Positions 5,034 through 28,019 of a DNA stretch of 40,284 nucleotides are shown one piece after another; the first letter of the stretch is position 1, and each line of letters begins with the position of its first letter. The position numbers were made by a program, and so were the translations under genes. This DNA comes from an uncultured Acetobacteraceae bacterium (GTDB lineage Bacteria > Pseudomonadota > Alphaproteobacteria > Acetobacterales > Acetobacteraceae), in contig CAIXEA010000226.1 in assembly GCA_903918315.1 (NCBI GenBank), forward strand, positions 1 to 40,284, written 5' to 3'. The notes below the pieces were generated by a model. That model saw only the letters and a list, made by a program, of their open reading frames with translations. It was not told the origin of the DNA and searched no databases.

Positions 5034-6077
5034 ATGAAACTCGGCCTCTCGATCGGCTATTCCAAAGCCCATCTCGATATCCCGGTGAAGCTGATCCAGC
5101 GGGCCGAGGAACTTGGTTATGATTCCGTCTGGACGGCGGAGGCCTATGGGTCCGATGCCGTGACGCCGCTCGCTTATCTGGCGGGACTGACGAAACGCAT
5201 CAAACTCGGCACCGGCATCATGCAGCTGGCCGCGCGTACGCCGGCCAATGCCGCGATGTGCGCCGGTACGGTGGACGCGCTCGCCGGTGGCGGGCGCTTC
5301 ATCGCCGGGCTCGGCGTGTCCGGCCCGCAGATCGTCGAGGGCTGGTATGGCGAACCTTGGGGCCGCCCGTACTACCGGCTGAAGGACTATGTCGCGATCA
5401 TGCGCAAGATTTTCGCCCGCGATGAGCCGCTGACGCATGAGGGACGCGAAATCTCCCTGCCCTATACCGGCGAAGGCGCCGCCGGCGTGGGCAAGGCGTT
5501 GAAATCCATCCTGCACATGAACAAATCGATACCGATTTATCTCGCCACCGGCAGCGAATCGACAGTGAAACTGACCGCCGAAATCGCCGATGGCTGGCTG
5601 CCCATGGGCTTCGTTCCCGGCGCGATGGAAGAATACCGCCCCTGGCTGGAAGAAGGTTTTCGGCGGGCTGGCAACGGCAAAACCATGGCGGATTTCGATA
5701 TCCAGGCCTCGGTCCATGTTGAAGTCGCCGAAGACGTAAAAGAAGCGCTGGCGAAACTGAAACCCGAAGTCGCGCTCTATGTCGGTGGCATGGGCCACAA
5801 GGACAAGAACTTCCACAAAGACCAGATGATACGCCGCGGCTTCGGCGAAGCGGCGGACCGGATTCAGGAACTGTATCTCGCGCATCGCAAGGAAGAGGCG
5901 ATCGCCGCCGTTCCTGACGAATGGGTGGATTTGAAATCCCTCGTCGGCCCCCCTGCCCGCATCAAGCAACGCTACCGCGCCTGGGAAGGCACCGGCGCGA
6001 CCGGCATCACCGTGCGCTCCCGCCAGCCCGCTGCGATCGAGGCCATGGCCGAAGCCGCCCGCCTGAACCAGCAATGA
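5034..6077 (+). CDS. LLM-class flavin (or F420)-dependent oxidoreductase
   Basis: A 347-residue luciferase-like TIM-barrel protein, distant from the product of 909-2144. MKLGLSIGYSKA, the ELGYDSVWTAEAYGSDA segment near 23-39, LGTGIMQLAARTPA near 59-72 and the GLGVSGPQIVEGWYGEPW loop near 97-114 resemble the actinobacterial F420-dependent subgroup. In an alphaproteobacterium FMN is the more likely cofactor, but F420 cannot be excluded from sequence. It starts 4 bp after the NIPSNAP stop with no strong ribosome site, which suggests translational coupling. It ends 11 bp before the SDR. As the second of two luciferase-like enzymes in one operon, it may act on a different oxidation step. Confidence 0.87.
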   Translation: MKLGLSIGYSKAHLDIPVKLIQRAEELGYDSVWTAEAYGSDAVTPLAYLAGLTKRIKLGTGIMQLAARTPANAAMCAGTVDALAGGGRFIAGLGVSGPQIVEGWYGEPWGRPYYRLKDYVAIMRKIFARDEPLTHEGREISLPYTGEGAAGVGKALKSILHMNKSIPIYLATGSESTVKLTAEIADGWLPMGFVPGAMEEYRPWLEEGFRRAGNGKTMADFDIQASVHVEVAEDVKEALAKLKPEVALYVGGMGHKDKNFHKDQMIRRGFGEAADRIQELYLAHRKEEAIAAVPDEWVDLKSLVGPPARIKQRYRAWEGTGATGITVRSRQPAAIEAMAEAARLNQQ

Positions 6078-19055: not shown

Positions 19056-19769
19056 CTAACGCGGGCTGGCGATCAAACCCATCAATGTATCGACCATCGG
19101 TCCGGTTGCGGCGGCGAGATCCTGCGGCCGCCCGTAGAGCAACCAGGTTATCAGCATATGCGTAATGCTGCCCATCAGGATCGTCGCACTCAGATGCGGG
19201 TCCAAATCGGCACGGAACTCCCCGCGCCGGCTTCCCTCCCGCAACATTGCCACGATAATCCGGCCGAAATCATCCACCGAGCGGCGGACCCGCGCTTCCT
19301 CGATCAGCACACTCGGCCAGATTTCCAAATACAGCAGCCGCGCCCAGTCCGGGTTGTCCCGGGCATGGTCGACCGTCATCGTCAGGAACAGGCGCAGCCG
19401 ATCGCGCATGGTGGGCAGGGGGGCGACCTGTTCGAGAAAGGCGGCGTAAAGATGCGCCAGCCGCTGGATGGGGATCTCGTAGGCCAGTGCCTCCTTGCTC
19501 GGGTAGTAGTCGTAGATCGACGAGACCGCGATCCCTGCTTCTTTCGCCACGTCCGCCATCTTGGCCTTGGCAATCCCATCGCGGGCGAATACCCGCGTCG
19601 CCGCGGCCAGCAACTCCCGCTTGCGCTGGCGGCTGCGCTGCTGCTTGGGGTCGGAGCCCCCGTCCTGGTGCGGCTGGGCCGCCTGTCCAAGGATCTCAAG
19701 CCAGGGGTCGGTGATCGAATCGGGCATCGGCGGCATCGGTTCCAAAGGGCACGCTTGACACTCTGACAT
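19056..19769 (-). CDS. TetR/AcrR-family transcriptional regulator
   Basis: A 237-residue regulator. After an unusual N-terminal tail of about 42 residues comes the TetR DNA-binding domain at about 43-95. It contains KRELLAAATRVFARDGIAK and a recognition helix region AGIAVSSIYDYYPSKEALA. The remaining alpha-helical part would bind the inducer, often an acyl-CoA or aromatic acid in catabolic clusters. Starts at 19769 and 19736 are both possible; neither has a strong ribosome site. It is divergent from the acyl-CoA ligase operon, with a perfect palindrome (19786-19798) between them, so autoregulation and repression of that operon is the likely role. A matching palindrome lies before the bicupin operon at 28005. 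Confidence 0.9.
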   Translation of the reverse strand: MSECQACPLEPMPPMPDSITDPWLEILGQAAQPHQDGGSDPKQQRSRQRKRELLAAATRVFARDGIAKAKMADVAKEAGIAVSSIYDYYPSKEALAYEIPIQRLAHLYAAFLEQVAPLPTMRDRLRLFLTMTVDHARDNPDWARLLYLEIWPSVLIEEARVRRSVDDFGRIIVAMLREGSRRGEFRADLDPHLSATILMGSITHMLITWLLYGRPQDLAAATGPMVDTLMGLIASPR

Positions 19770-19784
19770 GCCCAGCCGTAAAAA
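19755..19784 (+). promoter_or_regulatory. Likely promoter of the acyl-CoA ligase operon
   Basis: TTGACA (19755-19760) is followed after 18 bp by TAAAAA (19779-19784), about 40 bp before the ligase ATG. The palindromic operator starts 1 bp after the -10 box, in the position expected for a repressor. The -10 match is modest. Confidence 0.45.
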
Positions 19785-19785
19785 G

Positions 19786-19798
19786 CGAATATTATTCG
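19786..19798. promoter_or_regulatory. Palindromic operator, probably bound by the adjacent TetR protein
   Basis: CGAATA-T-TATTCG is a perfect inverted repeat with a single central base. It lies between the divergent TetR gene and the ligase operon, just after the likely -10 box. The extended sequence CGAATATTATTCGGAA matches 28006-28021 at all but two positions. A weaker version, CGAATATTATC, occurs at 33019. Confidence 0.7.
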
Positions 19799-19825
19799 GA
19801 ATTGGTCAACGGGAGACCCGAACCC

Positions 19826-21367
19826 ATGCCGCCTTACAGCCGGAGCCTGGCGGACCTTGTGTTCGAACAAGCCGAGCGCTTCCCCTCCCGCCCCGCCGTG
19901 ATCGACGGGGATCAGACCATCACTTACGCCGAACTGGCTGAGCGCGCGTCGCGGGTGGCGGGTGCGCTGCGTGCCCGGGGGATCGGGCGCGGCGACCGGG
20001 TCGGGCTGCTGGTCAACAACCGCGCGGAATGGCTGGACGCTTTCTTCGGCACCATGATCGCTGGCGCCACCGTCGCCGCCTTCAGCACCTGGTCGACCGA
20101 GGACGAGCTCGACTGGCTGATCGGTGATTCAGCCATCTGCCTGCTGATCGCGGTCGATCGCTTCGCCGACAACGACTACGCCGCCTATGCGCAGCGCCTG
20201 GTCCCGAAACACCCGGCGCTAAAGGCGGTCGTGCTGGTCAGCGAATTCGCCGCCCTCCTGACCGCCGAACCAGCCCCCCGCCTCGATCCCGGCCATGGCG
20301 CCAGCGCGGGCGACGCGGCGATCGTGATCTATACGTCTGGTTCCAGCGCGCGCCCGAAATCGGTGCCGCTGACGCATCTTGGCATTATCGAGAACGGCTT
20401 CAATATCGGCGAACGCCAGGGCTATACGCCGGACGACCGGGTGCTGCTGGCGCCGCCGCTGTTCTGGTCCTATGGCAGCGCCAACGCGATGTCGGCCGTG
20501 CTGACGCATGGCGCTGCGCTGGTGCTGCAAGGCAAGTTCGAACCGGGTGAGGCCATCGCCCTGATCGCAAAGCACCGCTGCACCGCGCTTTACACGCTGC
20601 CGGCAATCACCAGCGCCATCATCTCCCACCCCACATTCTTCCGCGACAAGACCCGCAGCCTGCGCACCGGCCTGACCATCGGCGCGCCGCAGGACATCCT
20701 GACCGCCGCGAACGTCCTGGGCGCGGCCGAGATCTGCAACGTTTACGGCCAGACCGAAAGCTACGGCAATTGCGCCGTGACCCCGCATCATTGGCCGCTG
20801 GAACAGCGCGCCGCCTGCCAGGGCCCGCCCTTGCCAGGCGTGACGGTCCGCATCACCGACCCCATGACCGGCGCGGCCCTGCCCCCGGGCGAGGAAGGGC
20901 TGATCGAGGTCCAGGGCTACGTGATGCACGGCTACACCGGATCGAGCGCGGATCAGACGGCGGCGGTGACGACGCCGGACGGGTTCTTCCGGACCGGCGA
21001 CATGGGGCGCTTGCTCCCGGATGGTTCGGTCGCCTTCAGCGGCCGGGTCAGCGAGATGATCAAAAAGGGCGGCATCAACATCTCCCCCGCCGAGGTGGAA
21101 GACGTGCTGATGCGCCATGAAGCCGTCGCTTTGGCCGGCGTCGTGGGCGTGCCCGACGCGACGCAGGGCGAACTGCTGGCAGCGTTCGTGGTGGCCAAAC
21201 CCGGCTTCGATCCGCTTGCAGCCGATCTGGTGGCGCATTGCCGGGCTTTGGCATCACGCTACAAGATCCCCGATTTCATCGAGATCCGGACCGAATTGCC
21301 GGTGACGGTGACGGGCAAGCTGATGCGCCGGGAACTCAAGACCATGGCGGCGAGGCTGCGCAAATGA
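19826..21367 (+). CDS. AMP-dependent acyl-CoA synthetase/ligase
   Basis: A 513-residue class I adenylate-forming enzyme that activates a carboxylic acid to acyl-AMP and then acyl-CoA. Visible core motifs are the phosphate loop IYTSGSSARPKSVPLTH near 168-184 (SSA replacing the usual STG), NVYGQTESYG near 303-312, the hinge region FRTGDMGRLLPDGSVAFSGR near 389-408, and the C-terminal catalytic lysine in TGKLMRREL near 496-504. ATG at 19826 is chosen for the GGGAGA upstream and the family start. First gene of the TetR-controlled operon; its stop overlaps the next start (ATGA). The substrate acid is unknown; fatty, aromatic or alicyclic acids are all possible. Confidence 0.92.
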   Translation: MPPYSRSLADLVFEQAERFPSRPAVIDGDQTITYAELAERASRVAGALRARGIGRGDRVGLLVNNRAEWLDAFFGTMIAGATVAAFSTWSTEDELDWLIGDSAICLLIAVDRFADNDYAAYAQRLVPKHPALKAVVLVSEFAALLTAEPAPRLDPGHGASAGDAAIVIYTSGSSARPKSVPLTHLGIIENGFNIGERQGYTPDDRVLLAPPLFWSYGSANAMSAVLTHGAALVLQGKFEPGEAIALIAKHRCTALYTLPAITSAIISHPTFFRDKTRSLRTGLTIGAPQDILTAANVLGAAEICNVYGQTESYGNCAVTPHHWPLEQRAACQGPPLPGVTVRITDPMTGAALPPGEEGLIEVQGYVMHGYTGSSADQTAAVTTPDGFFRTGDMGRLLPDGSVAFSGRVSEMIKKGGINISPAEVEDVLMRHEAVALAGVVGVPDATQGELLAAFVVAKPGFDPLAADLVAHCRALASRYKIPDFIEIRTELPVTVTGKLMRRELKTMAARLRK

Positions 21368-22239
21368 GCCAGGAAGCCTGGAACCGCTGGGGGCCGGAGG
21401 ACGAGCGCGGCGCGCTCAATCATATCGGCCCGGCGCAGGTACAGCGGGCGGCGGGTCTGGTGCGCTCCGGCCAGGTGCTGTCGCTGGCGCAGCCTTTATC
21501 GGCCCGCACCCCGGTTCCGGCGCATCGCGCGGGGGTTCAGCATTTCCTGGGCCGCGATGGCGGGGACTACGCAGCCGGCGCCCGCCAGCCCGGCGGCTTC
21601 CAGTTCGCCGAGGACACCGCCATCCTGCCGCTGCATATCGGCACGCATATCGATGCCCTCTGCCACGCCTGGTATGGCGATCAGCTCTACAACGGCTTTC
21701 CCGGCAACGGTACCACCAGCACCCGCGGCGCCAGCCGTTGCGGTATCGACAAGATGGGGCCGATCGCCGGGCGCGGGGTGCTGCTGGATATCGCGGCACT
21801 TTATGGGGAACCCTTGAAAGACGGGTTTTCCATTGGCCTGGCCGACATGGAACGCGCCGCGAAGGCGGCCGGCGTTCGACCGGGCAAGGGCGACATCGTG
21901 CTCATCCGCACCGGCTGGGCCGAACGCCAAAGCCGATCGGCTGATATTTCGTTCAACGCCGAACCAGGGATCGACGTCGAAGCCGGACTATGGCTGGCCG
22001 AGGCGGAGATCGCGGTCCTCGGCGCCGATAATTACGCAGTCGAGGTGCTGCCCTTCCCCACCGGCACCGTCTTTCCCGTGCATCAGCGCCTGATCCGCGA
22101 TTACGGCATACCGTTGATCGAAGGTTTGGTGCTGGAGGGTCTGGCCGCCACCGGCCGCAACGAATTTCTGTTCGCCGCCAGCCCGCTGCCGGTTGTCGGC
22201 GGCACCGGCAGCCCGATCAGCCCGATGGTGGTGCTGTGA
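21364..22239 (+). CDS. Cyclase-family protein (kynurenine-formamidase-like metal hydrolase)
   Basis: A 291-residue member of the cyclase family, with the metal-binding signature HIGTHIDALCH at 91-101 (H91, H95, D97, H101; family pattern HxGTHxDxPxH, with leucine-cysteine variants known). Family members hydrolyse formamides, lactones or cyclic amides using Mn or Zn. The start overlaps the ligase stop by 4 bp, so the two are translationally coupled. In the operon it could open a ring or remove a formyl or amide group before or after CoA activation. The 70-bp gap to the next gene contains an AAGGAG ribosome site. Confidence 0.88.
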   Translation: MSQEAWNRWGPEDERGALNHIGPAQVQRAAGLVRSGQVLSLAQPLSARTPVPAHRAGVQHFLGRDGGDYAAGARQPGGFQFAEDTAILPLHIGTHIDALCHAWYGDQLYNGFPGNGTTSTRGASRCGIDKMGPIAGRGVLLDIAALYGEPLKDGFSIGLADMERAAKAAGVRPGKGDIVLIRTGWAERQSRSADISFNAEPGIDVEAGLWLAEAEIAVLGADNYAVEVLPFPTGTVFPVHQRLIRDYGIPLIEGLVLEGLAATGRNEFLFAASPLPVVGGTGSPISPMVVL

Positions 22240-22309
22240 TGGCTGATATGACGCCACCCGCATCGCCCCGCCGACTGCTGTCACCGACACGATCATAAGG
22301 AGCACCATC

Positions 22310-23449
22310 ATGGGTTTACGGGTCCAGCCAGGGATTATCGGCTGCGCGATCCGGCCGGTTATCGCCAGCCGCGATCGCTCGCTTGAGGAAATCATCTACG
22401 AAACCGCGCAACTCGCGTTGAAAGACGCCGGCCTGACCATCAACGATATCGATGGCATCGCGGTGGGCAGCAATGATCAATTCGATGGCCGATCGATCTC
22501 GGTGATGATGGCGTCGGGTTCCGTTGGTGGGGTTGATCGCGACATCATGTCCACGCCCTCGGCCAGTGAGCATGCGTTCATTCTGGGTGCGCTGCGGGTC
22601 GCCACGGGCCAGTTCCGCACCCAGCTGATCGTGTCCTGGAGCCCGACGGAAGTGTCGTCAATGCCGGAGGCGCAGCGGCTTGGCACCGACCCCTATTTCC
22701 ACCGCGCCTTGCCGCTGGACGAGTTGTCGGCGCATGCGCTGCAGGCCTCGGCATTGGAAAGCGTTGTGCCCGGCGCACGCGCGGCGGCGCAAGCCGTGAC
22801 GGCGAAGAACCGGGCGCAGGGTCAGGCTGCCTACCCTGCCCCGCCCATGACACCGGACGCCGGCGCACTCCGTTGGCCACTGACGCCGTCGATGACCTCG
22901 GCCCCGGTGACGGGCGCGGTGGCGATGGTGTTGGCCTGCCCCGAATTCATCGCCGAACGCGGCATCACCAACGTGGCCTGGCTTCAGGGCATGGGTTGGG
23001 CGACGGAGGCCGGGTTCCTCGGCGATCGCGACCTCACCACCGCTCCGGCGCTGGATGCCGCGGTGAAGCAGGCCTATGCGATGGCCGGCATCACCGATCC
23101 GGCCTCCGCCTTCGGGGTGGTGGAAATCACCGATGCCTCCCCCTATGCCGAACTGCTGGCCTATGAAGCGCTCGGCCTTTGCGCCCGCGACGAGTGGGAA
23201 GCGCGGACGACGGACGGCACGTTCAGTGTCGGCGGCAAGCTGCCGATCAATCCGTCGGGGGGGGCGCTGACCTGGAATCCGGTGTTCTGCACCGGCCTGA
23301 TCCGTATCGCGGAGGTCGCGCAGCAGGTGCGCGGCAAGGCTGGCGCGCATCAGGTCCCCCACGTGACCCGTGGCCTCGCCCATGCCGGGAGCGGCTTTGC
23401 CATGATGTATCAGGCCGCGGTTATTCTTGGACAGGAGGCACGGGCATGA
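22310..23449 (+). CDS. Thiolase-fold lipid-transfer-type protein lacking thiolase catalytic residues
   Basis: A 379-residue thiolase-superfamily protein. The nucleophile-loop region (DIMSTPSASEHAFILGALRVA near 79-98) carries no cysteine. The GHP histidine motif is replaced in PSGGALTWNPVFCTG near 314-328, and the C-terminal CxGGGxG is replaced by LAHAGSGFA. It is therefore unlikely to perform ordinary thiolysis. The same losses are known in Ltp2-type partners of DUF35 proteins that cleave side chains by retro-aldol reaction; that role here is inference. Overlaps the next thiolase-like gene by 4 bp, implying a 1:1 complex. Good ribosome site (AAGGAG). Confidence 0.85.
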   Translation: MGLRVQPGIIGCAIRPVIASRDRSLEEIIYETAQLALKDAGLTINDIDGIAVGSNDQFDGRSISVMMASGSVGGVDRDIMSTPSASEHAFILGALRVATGQFRTQLIVSWSPTEVSSMPEAQRLGTDPYFHRALPLDELSAHALQASALESVVPGARAAAQAVTAKNRAQGQAAYPAPPMTPDAGALRWPLTPSMTSAPVTGAVAMVLACPEFIAERGITNVAWLQGMGWATEAGFLGDRDLTTAPALDAAVKQAYAMAGITDPASAFGVVEITDASPYAELLAYEALGLCARDEWEARTTDGTFSVGGKLPINPSGGALTWNPVFCTGLIRIAEVAQQVRGKAGAHQVPHVTRGLAHAGSGFAMMYQAAVILGQEARA

Positions 23450-24627
23450 GCGGCGATCGCGTCGGCATTATCGGTATCGGCCAATCCGCGTTCCGCGCCC
23501 GCCGTGACGATGCCAACTACCCCGAACTGGTGCGCGAAGCCGTGGTCATGGCCATGGCCGACGCCAAGATGGACTTCGACGCCATCCAGGCCGTGGTTTA
23601 CTCCCTGTCCCCCGACGCCATGATCGGTATTGGCAATGCGGAACGTTTAGGCGTCGATGCGGTTGGCGGGCGGAGCAAACCGTTCCTGCGCATCAACACC
23701 GGCGGCGCGACCGGTATTTCGTCCGCCGCCGCTGCTTATTACCATGTCGCCTCCGGCATGTACGACGTCGTGCTGACGGCCGGCGCCGATAAGGTTGGTG
23801 AATGCGGCGACTCCCAGTCCGTTTTGAACAAGATCTGGGATCCCAGCTACGAACGCCCGCTGCCGCTCGGCACCATCAACATGCTGGCGATGTCGGGCCT
23901 GCGCTACATGGATCAGTTCGGCATGACGCAGGAGGACATGGCCTATGTAACGGTCAAAAACCGCCGCCATGCCGCGCTGAACCCGAACGCGCATCTGCGC
24001 AAGGTCGTCACGATTGACGATGTGATGGACAGCCGGATCATTTCCTGGCCCATCAAACTGCTGGATTGCTGTCCGCAATCCACCGGTGGCGCGGCTTTGG
24101 TGATGGCGTCGGAGAAATACATCAAGGACAATCATCTCGACGCGGTGTGGATCACCGGCGTGGCGCACGCGGCGGAGACCTATTGGATGGGCGACCGCAT
24201 GGGCAACAATCCCACCGCGGAACACTCCGGCGCGCATGCCTTGGCCCGTTCGTTCGAGAAATCCTACCGTATGGCGGGAATCAAGGATCCGGCGAAGCAG
24301 GTGCATGTCGCCGAACTCTATGCCCCGTTCAGCAACACCGAATTCCACGCCATCGATTCCGCGAAGCTGGTCGCAAAGCCGGGCGATTCTATCCGGCCAT
24401 TGCTAGACGGGGAGTTTGAACTGGGCGGCCGCATTCCGGTCAATCCGTCCGGCGGCACGCTCTGCACCAATGCGATCGCGGTGACCGCGATGGCGCGCGT
24501 GGCGGAGACGGCGTTGCAGGTCTGGGGACGGGCCGGGGCGCATCAGGTCAAGGGCGCGAAACTGGGCATCGCCAGCGGCAATGGCGGCGACCACCAGATT
24601 TTCGGCACCATGGTTATCGAAGCTTAA
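23446..24627 (+). CDS. Second thiolase-fold protein without canonical catalytic residues
   Basis: A 393-residue thiolase-superfamily protein, clearly different from its neighbour. MSGDRVGIIGIGQSAF is the usual first strand. The nucleophile loop reads NTGGATGISSAAAAYYH near 84-100, with threonine/glycine in place of cysteine. GHP is replaced in NPSGGTLCTNAIAV, and the C-terminal glycine loop reads SGNGGDHQIFG. ATG at 23446 overlaps the previous stop (ATGA) and has AGGAGG upstream. The cysteines in LLDCCPQ near 205 are not in the catalytic position. The pair plus the DUF35 protein resembles heteromeric Ltp/ChsH-type assemblies. Confidence 0.88.
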   Translation: MSGDRVGIIGIGQSAFRARRDDANYPELVREAVVMAMADAKMDFDAIQAVVYSLSPDAMIGIGNAERLGVDAVGGRSKPFLRINTGGATGISSAAAAYYHVASGMYDVVLTAGADKVGECGDSQSVLNKIWDPSYERPLPLGTINMLAMSGLRYMDQFGMTQEDMAYVTVKNRRHAALNPNAHLRKVVTIDDVMDSRIISWPIKLLDCCPQSTGGAALVMASEKYIKDNHLDAVWITGVAHAAETYWMGDRMGNNPTAEHSGAHALARSFEKSYRMAGIKDPAKQVHVAELYAPFSNTEFHAIDSAKLVAKPGDSIRPLLDGEFELGGRIPVNPSGGTLCTNAIAVTAMARVAETALQVWGRAGAHQVKGAKLGIASGNGGDHQIFGTMVIEA

Positions 24628-24639
24628 AGGAATATCGCA

Positions 24640-25095
24640 ATGGAACTGTTGGGCCGCCAGGAAGTCTGGAACATCACCTATGACCACGCGCTCGGCGAAA
24701 CCGCGAGCACGTTCTACACACTGATTCGCGACGAGGCCGCGATCTATGGCCGCCGCATCGCCGGCAGCAACAAGGTCATGGTGCCGCCGCGCTCATTTTC
24801 GGATGAGACTCTGGAACCCACGGGCGAATGGGTCAAAGTCGGCCCGGGCGGGCGGATCGAGGCATTCACGATGGTGTACGAAGCCTTCAAGAACCTGCCG
24901 CCGCCGCCCTATGCATTCGGCTACGTGCTGCTGGATGGCGCGGATACCGCGCTGGGCGGGTTCTTCAAGGGCATCGACCTGACCGATCCGGAAGCAGCCG
25001 CGGCGAAGCTGAAGATCGGCACCCGGGTGGTGGCCACCTTCGCCGCTGAGCGGAAAGGCGAAATGATGGATTTCTGGTTCGAGTTGGAGGGGTAG
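24640..25095 (+). CDS. DUF35/OB-fold acyl-CoA-associated protein without zinc-ribbon cysteines
   Basis: A 151-residue protein of the DUF35 (OB-fold nucleic-acid-binding-like) family that normally partners thiolase-fold enzymes and binds acyl-CoA. The family's N-terminal rubredoxin-like zinc ribbon, usually four cysteines around a PPR motif, is reduced to SNKVMVPPRSFSDE. The whole protein contains no cysteine. The OB-fold part is recognisable from GEWVKVGPGGRIEAFTMVYEAF near 62-83 and PPPPYAFGYVLLDGADTALGGF near 86-107. Last gene of the operon, 12 bp after the second thiolase-like gene, and followed by a strong terminator. Confidence 0.87.
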   Translation: MELLGRQEVWNITYDHALGETASTFYTLIRDEAAIYGRRIAGSNKVMVPPRSFSDETLEPTGEWVKVGPGGRIEAFTMVYEAFKNLPPPPYAFGYVLLDGADTALGGFFKGIDLTDPEAAAAKLKIGTRVVATFAAERKGEMMDFWFELEG

Positions 25096-25100
25096 TTTCC

Positions 25101-25137
25101 CCGTCTCTCCCCCTCCACGCCGGAGGGGGAGAGACGG
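25101..25137. terminator. Strong bidirectional hairpin terminator
   Basis: CCGTCTCTCCCCCTCC (25101-25116) and GGAGGGGGAGAGACGG (25122-25137) form a perfect 16-bp stem with a 5-nt loop, midway between the convergent DUF35 and binding-protein genes. The same CTCTCCCCCTC core recurs in the hairpin at 35311-35343. Confidence 0.75.
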
Positions 25138-25150
25138 TCTCTCTTCCCCG

Positions 25151-26062
25151 CTACGCCTTCACCAACGGGCAGCCGAACAACCCTGCCGGCGGGAACGCCT
25201 CCGGTGACGGCACCGTCGCCAGATTCTCAAACAGGTCCCATTTGTGCTGGCTCTGCGCCGGCGCCTTCACCTGCCAGAGATGCATGGTGTGCGGCACGCA
25301 GCCATTGTCCATGATCTTCACGCCTTTGTTGTAGAAATCGTTCAACGGGATCGCGCGCATCTGCGCCGCAACCGCGTCCGCATCCAGGGTTCCCGCCGCT
25401 TTCACCGCCTTCAGCCAATGCGAGACCGCCGCGTACATGCCGGCGTTATATTCATTCGGTGGCGCGTTCATCTTGGCAATGTAACGCTCACTCCAGGCGC
25501 GGGTTTCCGGGGTCGCATCAAAATAGAACGAATTGGTCAGCACCAGGCCCTGACACACATCCTGGCCCAGCGACAGCACATCGCCCACCCCTTTAGCCAG
25601 CGCATAGGTATCCGCCGCGAACTGAAACCCATACGGCGAGCACTGCTTACCAATAAACGCCGTCGAGGTCGGCGTGCTCATCAAAAACAGCCGCTTCTTT
25701 TCGAGCGCCACCTGCTGGATCGCCAGCCCGGCCGAGGACGCCGCGCCGTCGGCCAGGACATCGACGCCTTTGTTGTCGATCCATTCCCGTGCCAAGGCGC
25801 CAGCGACATCGGCCTTGTTCTGATCATCACCCTGCATGACCTCCAGCGGGCGGCCCAGAACCGATCCGCCGAAATCGGCTACCGCCATTTCAGCGGTCAC
25901 CCGGCTGCCGGGCCCGCCGACATGGCGGTAGGGCCCGGCCACGTCGCTGAGTAAGCCGATGCGGATGGGCACGGATGATGATTGCGCGCGTAATAATCCG
26001 GGGCGCGCCAGCGGGGCAGCCGCCAGAGCCGCGAGAGCCACCCGTCGCGATAGATCAGCCAT
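25151..26062 (-). CDS. ABC transporter substrate-binding protein (branched-chain amino acid type), internally shortened
   Basis: A 303-residue periplasmic binding protein of the Peripla_BP_6/LivJ type with a Tat-like or Sec signal (RRVALAALAAAPLARPGLLRAQ). Normal relatives have about 400 residues. The N-terminal lobe (VPIRIGLLSDVAGPYRHVGG onward) runs normally to DTYALAKGVG near 151-160, then jumps directly to DVLSLGQDVCQGLVLTNSFYF, which in relatives comes about 90-100 residues later. The missing part would carry strands of the second lobe. The frame is intact, so this is a clean in-frame deletion rather than a frameshift. Ligand binding may be lost or altered. Last gene of the bicupin operon. 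No permease or ATPase genes are nearby. Confidence 0.87.
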   Translation of the reverse strand: MADLSRRVALAALAAAPLARPGLLRAQSSSVPIRIGLLSDVAGPYRHVGGPGSRVTAEMAVADFGGSVLGRPLEVMQGDDQNKADVAGALAREWIDNKGVDVLADGAASSAGLAIQQVALEKKRLFLMSTPTSTAFIGKQCSPYGFQFAADTYALAKGVGDVLSLGQDVCQGLVLTNSFYFDATPETRAWSERYIAKMNAPPNEYNAGMYAAVSHWLKAVKAAGTLDADAVAAQMRAIPLNDFYNKGVKIMDNGCVPHTMHLWQVKAPAQSQHKWDLFENLATVPSPEAFPPAGLFGCPLVKA

Positions 26063-26082
26063 GGGCGTTTCCTTTTTATTAT

Positions 26083-26952
26083 TTATGCCGCCAATACCGT
26101 ATCGACACCCGCGATGGTCGTGCGATGCATCACCCGCCGCTCGGTCGGGTCATGCGGCGTCACCTGATGCATCGTGCAACGATTGTCCCATTGCACGATG
26201 TCGTGCGGTTCCCACCGATGCTCGTACACAAACCGCCGTTCCCCCGCCAACCCCGTCAGATCGGCGATCAACTGCCGCGCTTCAGCCTGAGGTATTCCTT
26301 CGATCTCGTCATTGTAGATCGGACTGATATAGAGCGAGGCCCGTTTCGTGACCGGATGCACCCGCACCATCGGCTGCCAGACCGGCGGCATCGCCGCGCG
26401 TTCCTCATCGGTCAAGGGCTTCAGGTCCGCCAGTTTATGCAGATGCCCGAAGTCATGCAGGGCCCGCCGGCCATGGATCCGGCGCTTCAGAGATTCAGGA
26501 AGAGCGTCGTACACGGCGTACATATTGGTGAAATGCGTCTCCCCGCCGGTGCGGCTGATTTCGACCCCATGCAGCAGCGACCCCGTGCAGGGCTTTTCCC
26601 GAAAACTGCTGTCGGTGTGCCAGAACTGCGCCAGCGCCACCTGCTTCACCGTCGCATGCGTGGGCGGCATCAACTCGTTATCGTCATTGACATTCGAAAC
26701 CCGGAAAATCTCCGGCAGAAAGCGCGAACGAATAATCTTTTGGTGATGCACCTCCAGATCGCCGAAGCAACGGGTGAAGGCAACATGCTGTTCGTCGGTG
26801 ATGTCCTGGTCTGGGAACACCAGCACCTGATATTGCATCCAGACATCATGCAGCGCCTGGAACGTCGCCGCATCGGGCACCACGCGCATATCGATACCGC
26901 GTACCTCGGCCCCGAGGGACGGATGCAGCGGACGGACCTGTAAACCGCTCAT
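26083..26952 (-). CDS. TauD/TfdA-family Fe(II)/2-oxoglutarate dioxygenase
   Basis: A 289-residue protein with H112 and D114 in FWHTDSSF, distal H262 in WDNRCTMH, and the 2-oxoglutarate arginine in ERRVMHR (R272/R273 or R277). These are all ligands needed for activity. It resembles the 2,4-D/taurine dioxygenase group and is a distant paralogue of the enzyme at 2149. GGGGGGA precedes the ATG. It lies between the bicupin (14-bp gap) and the binding protein (20-bp gap) in an operon whose upstream region carries the TetR-type palindrome. It probably hydroxylates the pathway substrate or an ether/amine derivative. Confidence 0.9.
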   Translation of the reverse strand: MSGLQVRPLHPSLGAEVRGIDMRVVPDAATFQALHDVWMQYQVLVFPDQDITDEQHVAFTRCFGDLEVHHQKIIRSRFLPEIFRVSNVNDDNELMPPTHATVKQVALAQFWHTDSSFREKPCTGSLLHGVEISRTGGETHFTNMYAVYDALPESLKRRIHGRRALHDFGHLHKLADLKPLTDEERAAMPPVWQPMVRVHPVTKRASLYISPIYNDEIEGIPQAEARQLIADLTGLAGERRFVYEHRWEPHDIVQWDNRCTMHQVTPHDPTERRVMHRTTIAGVDTVLAA

Positions 26953-26966
26953 GGCAATCCCCCCGA

Positions 26967-27923
26967 TCAGACCGGTTGCTCGACGAATTCGAAGCCCATG
27001 GCGCGGGCGTGATAGTAAATCCCGCCATCCTGAATGATCAGGAACAAAGCCCGCTCATTGCCGCCATTGTGGTGGGAGTGGACGGAAACCGGCGGCGTGA
27101 TCGTGGTCGCCCAGGGCGCCCAGTCCTTGCGCTTGCCGTCAATGACGGAAAAGCACCGCTCCCCCTTGATCACCAGTGACACCGCGACCGAATTATGTCG
27201 GTGCGGCCGTTGCACCACCCCGCCCGGCAACGAGTTCATCGCCGCCGTCAAGGTGGGCAGGATATTGCGCGTCGCTTCCTGCCGTTCGGCGGAGAAGATC
27301 AGCGCCGAACCGGCGATCTGCTCGTTGCGGCCGACATCGTAGAGCAGGTCGATCTGCCGATCGATCTCCGCGCCGCGATAGTGCACGACATCGGTCGGGG
27401 CTTCGCCGGGGGCGGGCGCGCGCAGCTTCTCGAACGCCAATTGCGGCTCATTGGTAACGATCCACAACACGGCGTCGGCATCGCCCGCGGTATGCGTCCC
27501 CGGCTCGCCTCCCGGGAGGATGAACAGATCGCCCGGGCCCCAGGCCACGGTCTCCCCCGCGCACAGCGTCTGGCCGGAGCCGGTGATGACATACGCAATC
27601 ACCCCGCTGGCGACGAAATCGGTCGCCAGCGTCTCCCCCGCCCGAATGCGCGCGTAATGCGCCAGGACCAGCGGGGAGGTCGCTGGAAACGCGCAGTCCA
27701 GCATTCCCGAAATATCGCACGTAATCAGCCCCGTCGGTGTCGCCGGGTCCAACGCACGGGCTGGCTCGTCGGTAAACAAATGATCCGGGACCACCGGCAA
27801 TTGCATGTTGAAGGCATTGCCGGTGTTGAAAAAGCGGCCCCGGGCTTGCGCCGGACTGGCCGGGTCTGCCGCCCGCTGGGCCGGCATTTCGGCAATCGTG
27901 TGGGGGCGAAGATCGTCGGGCAT
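26967..27923 (-). CDS. Bicupin protein, gentisate 1,2-dioxygenase-like
   Basis: A 318-residue protein with two cupin domains. The first (about 80-160: RIRAGETLATDFVASGVIAYVITGSG, GPGDLFILPGG) lacks the histidines for metal binding. The second (about 228-310) has PHRHNSVAVSLVIKG with H241 and H243 and VHSHH with H282/H284/H285, a plausible Fe or Mn site. Length and domain order are close to gentisate or salicylate 1,2-dioxygenases, which normally keep the metal in the N-terminal cupin, so the reversed arrangement is notable. ATG at 27923 has a GGGAG ribosome site. First gene of the operon behind the palindrome at 28005-28019. Confidence 0.83.
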   Translation of the reverse strand: MPDDLRPHTIAEMPAQRAADPASPAQARGRFFNTGNAFNMQLPVVPDHLFTDEPARALDPATPTGLITCDISGMLDCAFPATSPLVLAHYARIRAGETLATDFVASGVIAYVITGSGQTLCAGETVAWGPGDLFILPGGEPGTHTAGDADAVLWIVTNEPQLAFEKLRAPAPGEAPTDVVHYRGAEIDRQIDLLYDVGRNEQIAGSALIFSAERQEATRNILPTLTAAMNSLPGGVVQRPHRHNSVAVSLVIKGERCFSVIDGKRKDWAPWATTITPPVSVHSHHNGGNERALFLIIQDGGIYYHARAMGFEFVEQPV

Positions 27924-28004
27924 GGGACGCACTCCCGTTACGCGCGGCTTGGGTACCGCTGCTTGGGAGACCATCCCAACCCGGCGTCAGGCTGTCAAGA
28001 TAAA

Positions 28005-28019
28005 CCGAATAATGTTCGG
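28005..28019. promoter_or_regulatory. Second TetR-type palindrome, upstream of the bicupin operon
   Basis: CCGAATA-A-TGTTCGG is an inverted repeat with one mismatch. Its core and right flank (TTCGGAA) match the operator at 19786. It lies about 80 bp upstream of the bicupin ATG, immediately upstream of a minus-strand TTGACA (27998-27993). No convincing -10 box was found. Both flanks of the 19.8-28.0 kb catabolic block thus carry the same site. Confidence 0.62.

What the first reader, a model, noticed from the sequence alone, without database searches (positions are those of the whole stretch)
19786..28019. Matched palindromes bracket a convergent two-operon catabolic block: a probable TetR regulon
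CGAATA-T-TATTCG between the TetR gene and the ligase operon, and CCGAATA-A-TGTTCGG before the bicupin operon, share CGAATA(A/T)T(A/G)TTCGGAA. They are the only good matches I found and lie exactly at the two promoter ends of a block whose operons converge on one strong terminator. This defines one coregulated system: ligase, cyclase, two pseudo-thiolases, DUF35, bicupin, TauD oxygenase and binding protein. I know of no described pathway with this gene set.
Basis: partly seen in the sequence, partly recalled or inferred. Interest (0 to 1): 0.75.

Follow-up and report, generated by a model that had tools for sequence, protein, structure and literature searches.

The report
TetR switch for an undescribed catabolic block
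Two matching DNA palindromes at the two ends of a bacterial gene block are most likely the landing sites of one local TetR-type switch that controls together two sets of genes for breaking down a still unknown compound; related bacteria often keep the genes but use a different switch.

Summary
In detail: CGAATATTATTCG (19786-19798) and CCGAATAATGTTCGG (28005-28019) sit at both promoter ends of a convergent block, and the exact pattern CGAATANTRTTCG occurs nowhere else in the 5.04-Mb genome. Comparison supports a local TetR regulon. Eight of 32 genomes searched, the own one included, carry this TetR at >=71% identity. The ligase operator is exact in 6 of their 7 readable ligase promoters and decayed in the seventh; it was not found in ten relatives without this TetR. 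The bicupin operator is kept in 4 of 6 readable TetR+ genomes, 6 bp before a TTGAC box, also in G156, where the two operons lie on different contigs; it is lost in two. Independently, the two operons co-occur (12 and 9 genomes of 200, 8 with both). Other lineages keep the catabolic genes with other TetR subfamilies and other palindromes, so control has been rewired. The ligase end looks like steric repression; the sign at the bicupin end is unsettled. The binding-protein gene has a 309-bp in-frame deletion. In kind it is a common local regulon; my searches of an open-access paper library found no description of the pathway. No binding data exist.

The parts
19056..19727 (-). TetR-family regulator (open frame extends to 19769; start at Met15 more likely)
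   Evidence: Pfam TetR_N 51.4 bits; >=71% identity matches in 8 of 32 genomes, own included; start from alignment A4
19755..19783 (+). predicted ligase-operon promoter TTGACA-N17-GTAAAA
   Evidence: read by eye; TTGACA-N17-xTAAAx also in G226, G156, G227, G094 and G228, N18 in G207; the strict consensus scan did not list it
19786..19798 (.). operator 1, CGAATATTATTCG, over the predicted transcription start of the ligase operon
19826..21367 (+). acyl-CoA ligase (AMP-forming)
   Evidence: Pfam AMP-binding 248 bits
21364..22239 (+). cyclase-family (PF04199) hydrolase-like protein
   Evidence: nearest solved chain 5ibz_A, E 3.6e-48
22310..23449 (+). thiolase-fold protein 1 without the catalytic Cys/His residues
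   Evidence: Thiolase_C_1; alignment A1
23446..24627 (+). thiolase-fold protein 2 with catalytic residues replaced
24640..25095 (+). DUF35 (OB-fold) protein, no zinc-ribbon match
   Evidence: PF01796 only
25101..25137 (.). terminator hairpin between the converging operons
25151..26062 (-). periplasmic binding protein with a 309-bp (103-codon) in-frame internal deletion
   Evidence: profile gap; DNA comparison with L038
26083..26952 (-). TauD/TfdA-family oxygenase
   Evidence: PF02668 216 bits
26967..27923 (-). bicupin with the gentisate/salicylate 1,2-dioxygenase fold (open frame extends to 27974; start at Met18 more likely)
27970..27998 (-). predicted bicupin-operon promoter TTGACA-N17-GATGGT
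   Evidence: read by eye; same spacing in G226, G156, G212; not listed by the strict scan
28005..28019 (.). operator 2, CCGAATAATGTTCGG, 6 bp upstream of the bicupin -35 box

Best explanation
The two palindromes are operators of the TetR-family protein encoded at 19056-19727, and together they define a small local regulon of two convergent operons and probably the regulator gene itself. Operator 1 lies just downstream of the -10 box, over the predicted start of ligase transcription and between the divergent tetR and ligase genes, so TetR bound there should block the ligase operon and probably its own gene. Operator 2 sits 6 bp upstream of the -35 box of the bicupin promoter, so TetR there either hinders RNA polymerase or, less classically, acts as an activator. 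Release by a ligand, plausibly a CoA ester made by the ligase, would switch both operons together. The operons form one catabolic module: CoA activation, an aldolase/thiolase-like CoA step by thiolase-fold proteins plus DUF35, a cyclase-family hydrolase, and two probably oxygen-dependent enzymes. Shown here: the sites, their uniqueness, their conservation with TetR, and co-occurrence of the two operons. Inferred: binding, sign, ligand, substrate and pathway order.
For: Exact pattern only at these two places in 5.04 Mb, control 0. This TetR is present at >=71% identity in 8 of 32 genomes searched, own included. The ligase operator is exact in 6 of their 7 readable ligase promoters (G000, G226, G156, G207, G227, G094; in G094 the tetR gene is on another contig) and decayed in G228 (GTGAATAAAATTCGG). 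In ten relatives with the ligase but without this TetR (G202, G205, G208, G077, G026, G035, G105, G108, G109, G167) the fetched loci hold no match; 6/7 against 0/10 gives Fisher p 6e-4, not corrected for kinship. The bicupin operator is present in G000, G226, G156 and G212 with the same 6-bp spacing to TTGAC(A/T), 4 of 6 readable TetR+ genomes. A sequence-only model of the sites, run on the 8 TetR+ genomes, returned 21 rows at E<=10, 20 of them at these two promoters. Motif-blind promoter-promoter comparison: G000 1/500, G226 0/500, G156 0/500 shuffles reach the observed score. Thiolase-1 and bicupin orthologues co-occur: of 200 genomes 12 and 9 hold them and 8 hold both, p 8e-11, not corrected for kinship. 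Both operons lie on one locus in 8 of 46 named loci (10-kb flanks), in convergent, colinear and divergent arrangements.
Against: No binding or expression data. The bicupin site is absent in G227 and decayed in G207, although both keep TetR and bicupin; the motif-blind comparison finds nothing in those two. The model's single-site E-values are weak (0.18-0.99), it was trained on sites it then found, it misses G228, and in each genome only 150 of 538-1050 first-look candidates were scored. Operator 2 lies upstream of the -35 box, an unusual place for a plain repressor. Neither promoter passes the strict sigma-70 scan. The TetR model is poor (pLDDT 67) and gave no ligand clue. Many relatives are draft genomes or MAGs, so some absences may be assembly gaps.
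Confidence: 0.8

Rival explanations
1. Only operator 1 is a TetR site (a local autoregulated repressor of the ligase operon); the bicupin palindrome is a chance or relict match and the bicupin operon is regulated otherwise.
For: Operator 2 is imperfect, lies upstream of -35, and is absent or decayed in 2 of 6 readable TetR+ genomes.
Against: It is the only other exact match in the genome, is kept at the same spacing in G226, G156 and G212, and the motif-blind comparison finds it in three genomes.
Confidence: 0.13
2. The bicupin-side palindrome is a weak intrinsic terminator of the upstream DUF3617 gene, which ends 20 bp away, not an operator.
For: The pattern scan lists it as terminator-like (5-pair stem followed by TTTATCTTGA).
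Against: The stem is very short. In L101 (G226) the DUF3617 homologue lies about 0.8 kb from the palindrome, and in the G156 and G212 loci no DUF3617 homologue was found, yet the palindrome stays before bicupin. It matches the tetR-ligase palindrome.
Confidence: 0.03
3. A different regulator, not the adjacent TetR, binds both sites.
For: In other lineages the same genes carry other TetR subfamilies with other palindromes, so regulators do get exchanged; in G094 the tetR gene is not beside the ligase operon.
Against: Site and this TetR co-occur: exact or decayed site in 7 of 7 readable ligase promoters of TetR+ genomes, no match in the loci of ten relatives without it.
Confidence: 0.06
4. At the bicupin end the TetR activates rather than represses, giving opposite signs at the two operators.
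For: Operator 2 is centred about 50 bp before the predicted start, with fixed 6-bp spacing to -35 and a weak -10 (GATGGT, GATGCT, AATGCT, GAACCT); a similar -35/-10 pair is seen by eye in bicupin promoters that lack the palindrome, such as G209.
Against: TetR proteins are mostly repressors (established knowledge); a dimer next to -35 can also hinder polymerase; opposite signs would split one pathway.
Confidence: 0.2

Closest known systems
TetR-family local autoregulators of CoA-ester catabolism (FadR, NCBIfam NF053878; mycobacterial bkaR, PMC3920632, seen only as a search listing with the start of its abstract)
   Same: TetR gene beside the catabolic operon, palindrome in the divergent promoter region; best NCBIfam match of this TetR is FadR (69.9 bits)
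   Different: Far below the FadR equivalog cut-off of 200 bits; target genes are not plain beta-oxidation
Ltp2-ChsH2(DUF35) and Sal-Shy side-chain aldolases of steroid degradation (PMC11321319, passages read; roles of the Ltp2 tyrosines recalled)
   Same: Thiolase-fold protein plus DUF35; in thiolase-2 the nucleophilic Cys position is Gly and the HDAF motif is YAPF, with Tyr at the position of Ltp2 Tyr294
   Different: The Ltp2 Tyr344 position is Ala (in a stretch aligned with low confidence); a second thiolase-fold protein lies in the operon; no MaoC domain matched in the ten proteins scanned
Multi-subunit thiolase/DUF35 complexes (BbsAB benzoylsuccinyl-CoA thiolase, PhlACB acyltransferase; subunit make-up recalled)
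   Same: Thiolase-fold proteins encoded next to a DUF35 protein; 7pxp and 5m3k are among the solved sequences matched
   Different: Catalytic residues replaced in both thiolase-fold proteins here; the DUF35 protein shows no zinc-ribbon match
Gentisate/salicylate/5-aminosalicylate 1,2-dioxygenases
   Different: 15% identity to 4fbf; the conserved His pattern (258, 260, 299 or 301) lies in the C-terminal cupin, and the N-terminal cupin has no HxH

Membership tests
TetR family transcription regulator | TetR_N helix-turn-helix domain at the N-terminus | tested here: met
   PF00440 51.4 bits, cut-off 24
TetR family transcription regulator | helical C-terminal ligand domain | tested here: met
   TetR_C_24, TetR_C_13 and TetR_C_4 above cut-off; nearly all-helical model of low confidence
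TetR local regulon | palindrome in the promoter regions of target genes and beside the regulator gene, specific genome-wide and conserved with the regulator | tested here: met
   two exact sites in 5.04 Mb, both at this block; conserved with TetR at the ligase end, in 4 of 6 at the bicupin end
TetR local regulon | regulator binds the operator and is released by a ligand | not testable with these tools
   needs gel shift with candidate ligands
FadR equivalog (NF053878) | score above the curated cut-off | tested here: not met
   69.9 bits against 200
Catalytic (Cys) thiolase | nucleophilic Cys, catalytic His and the His of the GHP loop | tested here: not met
   thiolase-2 against BbsB: Cys->Gly, His->Tyr, GHP His->Asn; thiolase-1: no Cys between residues 12 and 210, catalytic His->Thr and GHP His->Asn
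Ltp2-type retro-aldolase | thiolase fold without Cys; Tyr294 and Tyr344 (roles recalled) | tested here: inconclusive
   the Tyr294 position is Tyr, the Tyr344 position is Ala, in the alignment to 6ok1_A
Gentisate/salicylate 1,2-dioxygenase fold | two cupin barrels in the gentisate-dioxygenase arrangement | tested here: met
Gentisate 1,2-dioxygenase (TIGR02272) | score above the curated cut-off | tested here: not met
   48.6 bits against 442.1

The most novel reading that the evidence does not exclude
The block encodes an undescribed aerobic CoA-dependent degradation route, built on a retro-aldolase-like complex of two catalytically repurposed thiolase-fold proteins with a DUF35 protein, coupled to a gentisate-fold bicupin with a displaced metal site and a TauD oxygenase. 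The ligase/thiolase/DUF35 core is spread over alpha- and betaproteobacteria, and its control has been captured by at least three TetR subfamilies with three different operators. In the window's lineage one TetR both represses (ligase end) and activates (bicupin end).
Probability: 0.25. Interest if true: 0.6.

Novelty: new member of a known kind. Interest (0 to 1): 0.42.

Why it matters
A two-site TetR regulon is ordinary in kind, but it gives a handle on an unknown pathway: the TetR ligand is probably a pathway intermediate, so ligand screening with this regulator could name the substrate. Comparing the same gene module under three TetR/operator pairs offers a natural case of regulatory rewiring of a conserved pathway.

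Tried and rejected
Window motif statistics at 3 mismatches are uninformative (32 found, 34 expected). The one-mismatch palindrome at C10:20707 lies inside a receptor-like frame (named by eye). Sixteen genomes without this TetR hold 7 exact sites together, none on the contigs of these operons; three exact sites elsewhere (G099:C42, G201:C136, G207:C87) were looked at and lie inside reading frames; the others were not looked at. Strict sigma-70 scans list no promoter at either operator; the -35/-10 boxes were read by eye from relatives. The TetR model was too poor for a fold search.

Promoter-promoter comparison was run on 14 pairs from 13 genomes. Four of the 14 were repeated with 500 dinucleotide shuffles. 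Of the other ten, judged by 40 simple shuffles each, eight were matched by 5 to 40 of the 40; G227 (2/40) and the second bicupin of G167 (1/40) gave short segments unlike either palindrome, which I set aside.

Rows dropped before counts: G092 (thiolase-1 at 33%), a second 32% match in G010, six bicupin matches at 51-55%, a TetR match of 45% in G010.

Paper searches: (8 papers listed of 8; 15 listed of 53; 1 of 1) list nothing describing this gene set; only titles and abstract starts were seen, apart from passages of PMC11321319. One search was too unspecific to say anything about the operator (5,064 papers, 12 listed); one search found no paper with TetR and TACTGATCAGTA; two searches gave nothing on this cluster. 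The Ltp2 structure paper (PMC6682727) is not held, so its residue roles are recalled.
Full report
WHAT IS THERE. The window lies in a 5.04-Mb genome of 241 contigs; the five nearest named loci are Acetobacteraceae MAGs. Gene order: tetR (-); ligase, PF04199 cyclase-family protein, two thiolase-fold proteins and DUF35 (all +); a hairpin terminator at 25101-25137; then, all on the minus strand and transcribed towards it, bicupin, TauD oxygenase and binding protein. Palindrome 1 (19786-19798) is perfect; palindrome 2 (28005-28019) has one mismatched pair.

CHANCE. The pattern CGAATANTRTTCG occurs exactly at two places in the genome, these two; the reversed control has none. Allowing one mismatch adds 7 rows at 6 other places, against 8 control rows. 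The motif was chosen after seeing it, so I also compared the two 200-bp promoters without any motif: the palindrome is the best shared segment in G000 (1 of 500 dinucleotide shuffles as good), in G226 (0 of 500) and in G156 (0 of 500).

CONSERVATION. The TetR was sought in 32 genomes, own included: 9 matched at E<=1e-30, 8 of them at >=71% identity (the ninth, G010, is 45% identical and not counted). Ligase promoters were readable in 7 of these 8. Six hold an exact palindrome directly after TTGACA-N17-xTAAAx (N18 in G207), and G228 holds GTGAATAAAATTCGG at the same place. In G212 no ligase was found at E<=1e-120. G094 keeps the site although its tetR lies on another contig. In ten relatives with the ligase but without this TetR the fetched loci hold no match. 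Bicupin promoters were readable in 6 of the 8: G000, G226, G156 and G212 carry CCGAAY-NN-TATTCGG 6 bp before TTGAC(A/T); G207 shows by eye a decayed remnant at the same spacing; G227 shows none; G228's contig ends too close to tell; G094 has no bicupin hit. In G156 the two operons lie on different contigs, so the shared sites there are not explained by one neighbourhood. A sequence-only model of the sites, run on the 8 TetR+ genomes, lists 21 rows at E<=10, of which 20 are these two promoters; its E-values are individually weak (0.18-0.99), it was trained on these sites, and it lists nothing in G228.

ONE SYSTEM WITHOUT THE PALINDROMES. Of 200 genomes of the family, own included, 12 hold thiolase-1 orthologues (a thirteenth match, G092 at 33% identity, dropped), 9 hold bicupin at >=66% identity (six matches at 51-55% dropped), and 8 hold both (p 8e-11, not corrected for kinship). 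Among 46 named loci the bicupin lies on the same locus in 8, in convergent, colinear and divergent order; flanks were at most 10 kb.

HOW IT PROBABLY WORKS. Operator 1 covers the predicted transcription start of the ligase operon and stands between divergent genes: a classical repressor and autoregulation site. Operator 2 is centred about 50 bp before the predicted bicupin start. Both starts are predictions; the strict consensus scans list no promoter. A ligand, probably a CoA ester from the pathway, should release TetR; this is inference from the FadR-like best match, which lies far below the FadR cut-off.

REWIRING. Other lineages keep the module with other regulators. Twelve of 30 ligase upstream regions in the named loci hold TACYNNNNRGTA (a shuffled-order control pattern: 0 of 30); over all 761,890 bases of these loci the pattern has 51 sites and the control 35, so the signal is in the promoters, not in the total. 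Eight of the 12 loci carry a regulator of one family, of which the member scanned is TetR_C_24; five further loci with that regulator have no such site before the ligase, which there follows another gene. L111 and L109 carry a TetR_C_30 regulator, divergent from the ligase or bicupin gene, and in G167 (the genome of L111) the ligase and bicupin promoters share GATTWAA-N4-ACGATTGACT (2 of 500 shuffles). On a ligase tree of 28 rows, the 5 window-type rows and the 11 TACY-type rows fall on different sides of well-supported branches; 12 rows belong to neither. The window TetR has no meaningful BLASTP match to the TetR_C_24 regulator tested and 24% identity over 131 residues to the TetR_C_30 one.

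VERDICT. In kind it is a common local TetR regulon; its interest lies in the undescribed pathway and in the exchange of regulators.

Noticed in passing
25151-26062: The binding-protein gene lacks 309 bp (103 codons) in frame compared with the full-length gene of G156 (L038), so the protein is probably non-functional here. In the near relative L101 no such gene was found at this place.
   Followed up: partly
L113, L115-L118, L120, L122, L123, L130, L132, L142, L144 ligase upstream regions: A different palindrome, TACYNNNNRGTA, stands before the same ligase gene in 12 of 30 loci; 8 of the 12 carry a TetR regulator of another subfamily.
   Followed up: yes
L111:2239-2946, L109:3146-4003, L144 about 5100-5784: A third TetR subfamily (TetR_C_30, scanned in L111 and L109; L144 by eye) is encoded beside the module, with a GATTWAA-N4-ACGATTGACT type palindrome in G167 and a similar one in L144.
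   Followed up: partly
L106 (record titled Nitrosovibrio sp. Nv4 MAG), L110 and L146 (titled Asaia bogorensis MAG): The module genes in L106 are 70-88% identical to the window; the MAG name may be wrong, or the module was transferred.
   Followed up: no
L108:13331-14362, also L046, L053, L095, L096, L097: An amidohydrolase gene (PF04909 in L108) lies close to the TauD/bicupin or binding-protein genes in several relatives and may be a further pathway step missing in the window.
   Followed up: no
L123, L124, L137, L144: Flavin monooxygenase genes (that of L144 best matches pentalenolactone D synthase PtlE, below cut-off), a nitronate-monooxygenase-like and an ATP-grasp CoA ligase gene accompany the core operon.
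   Followed up: partly
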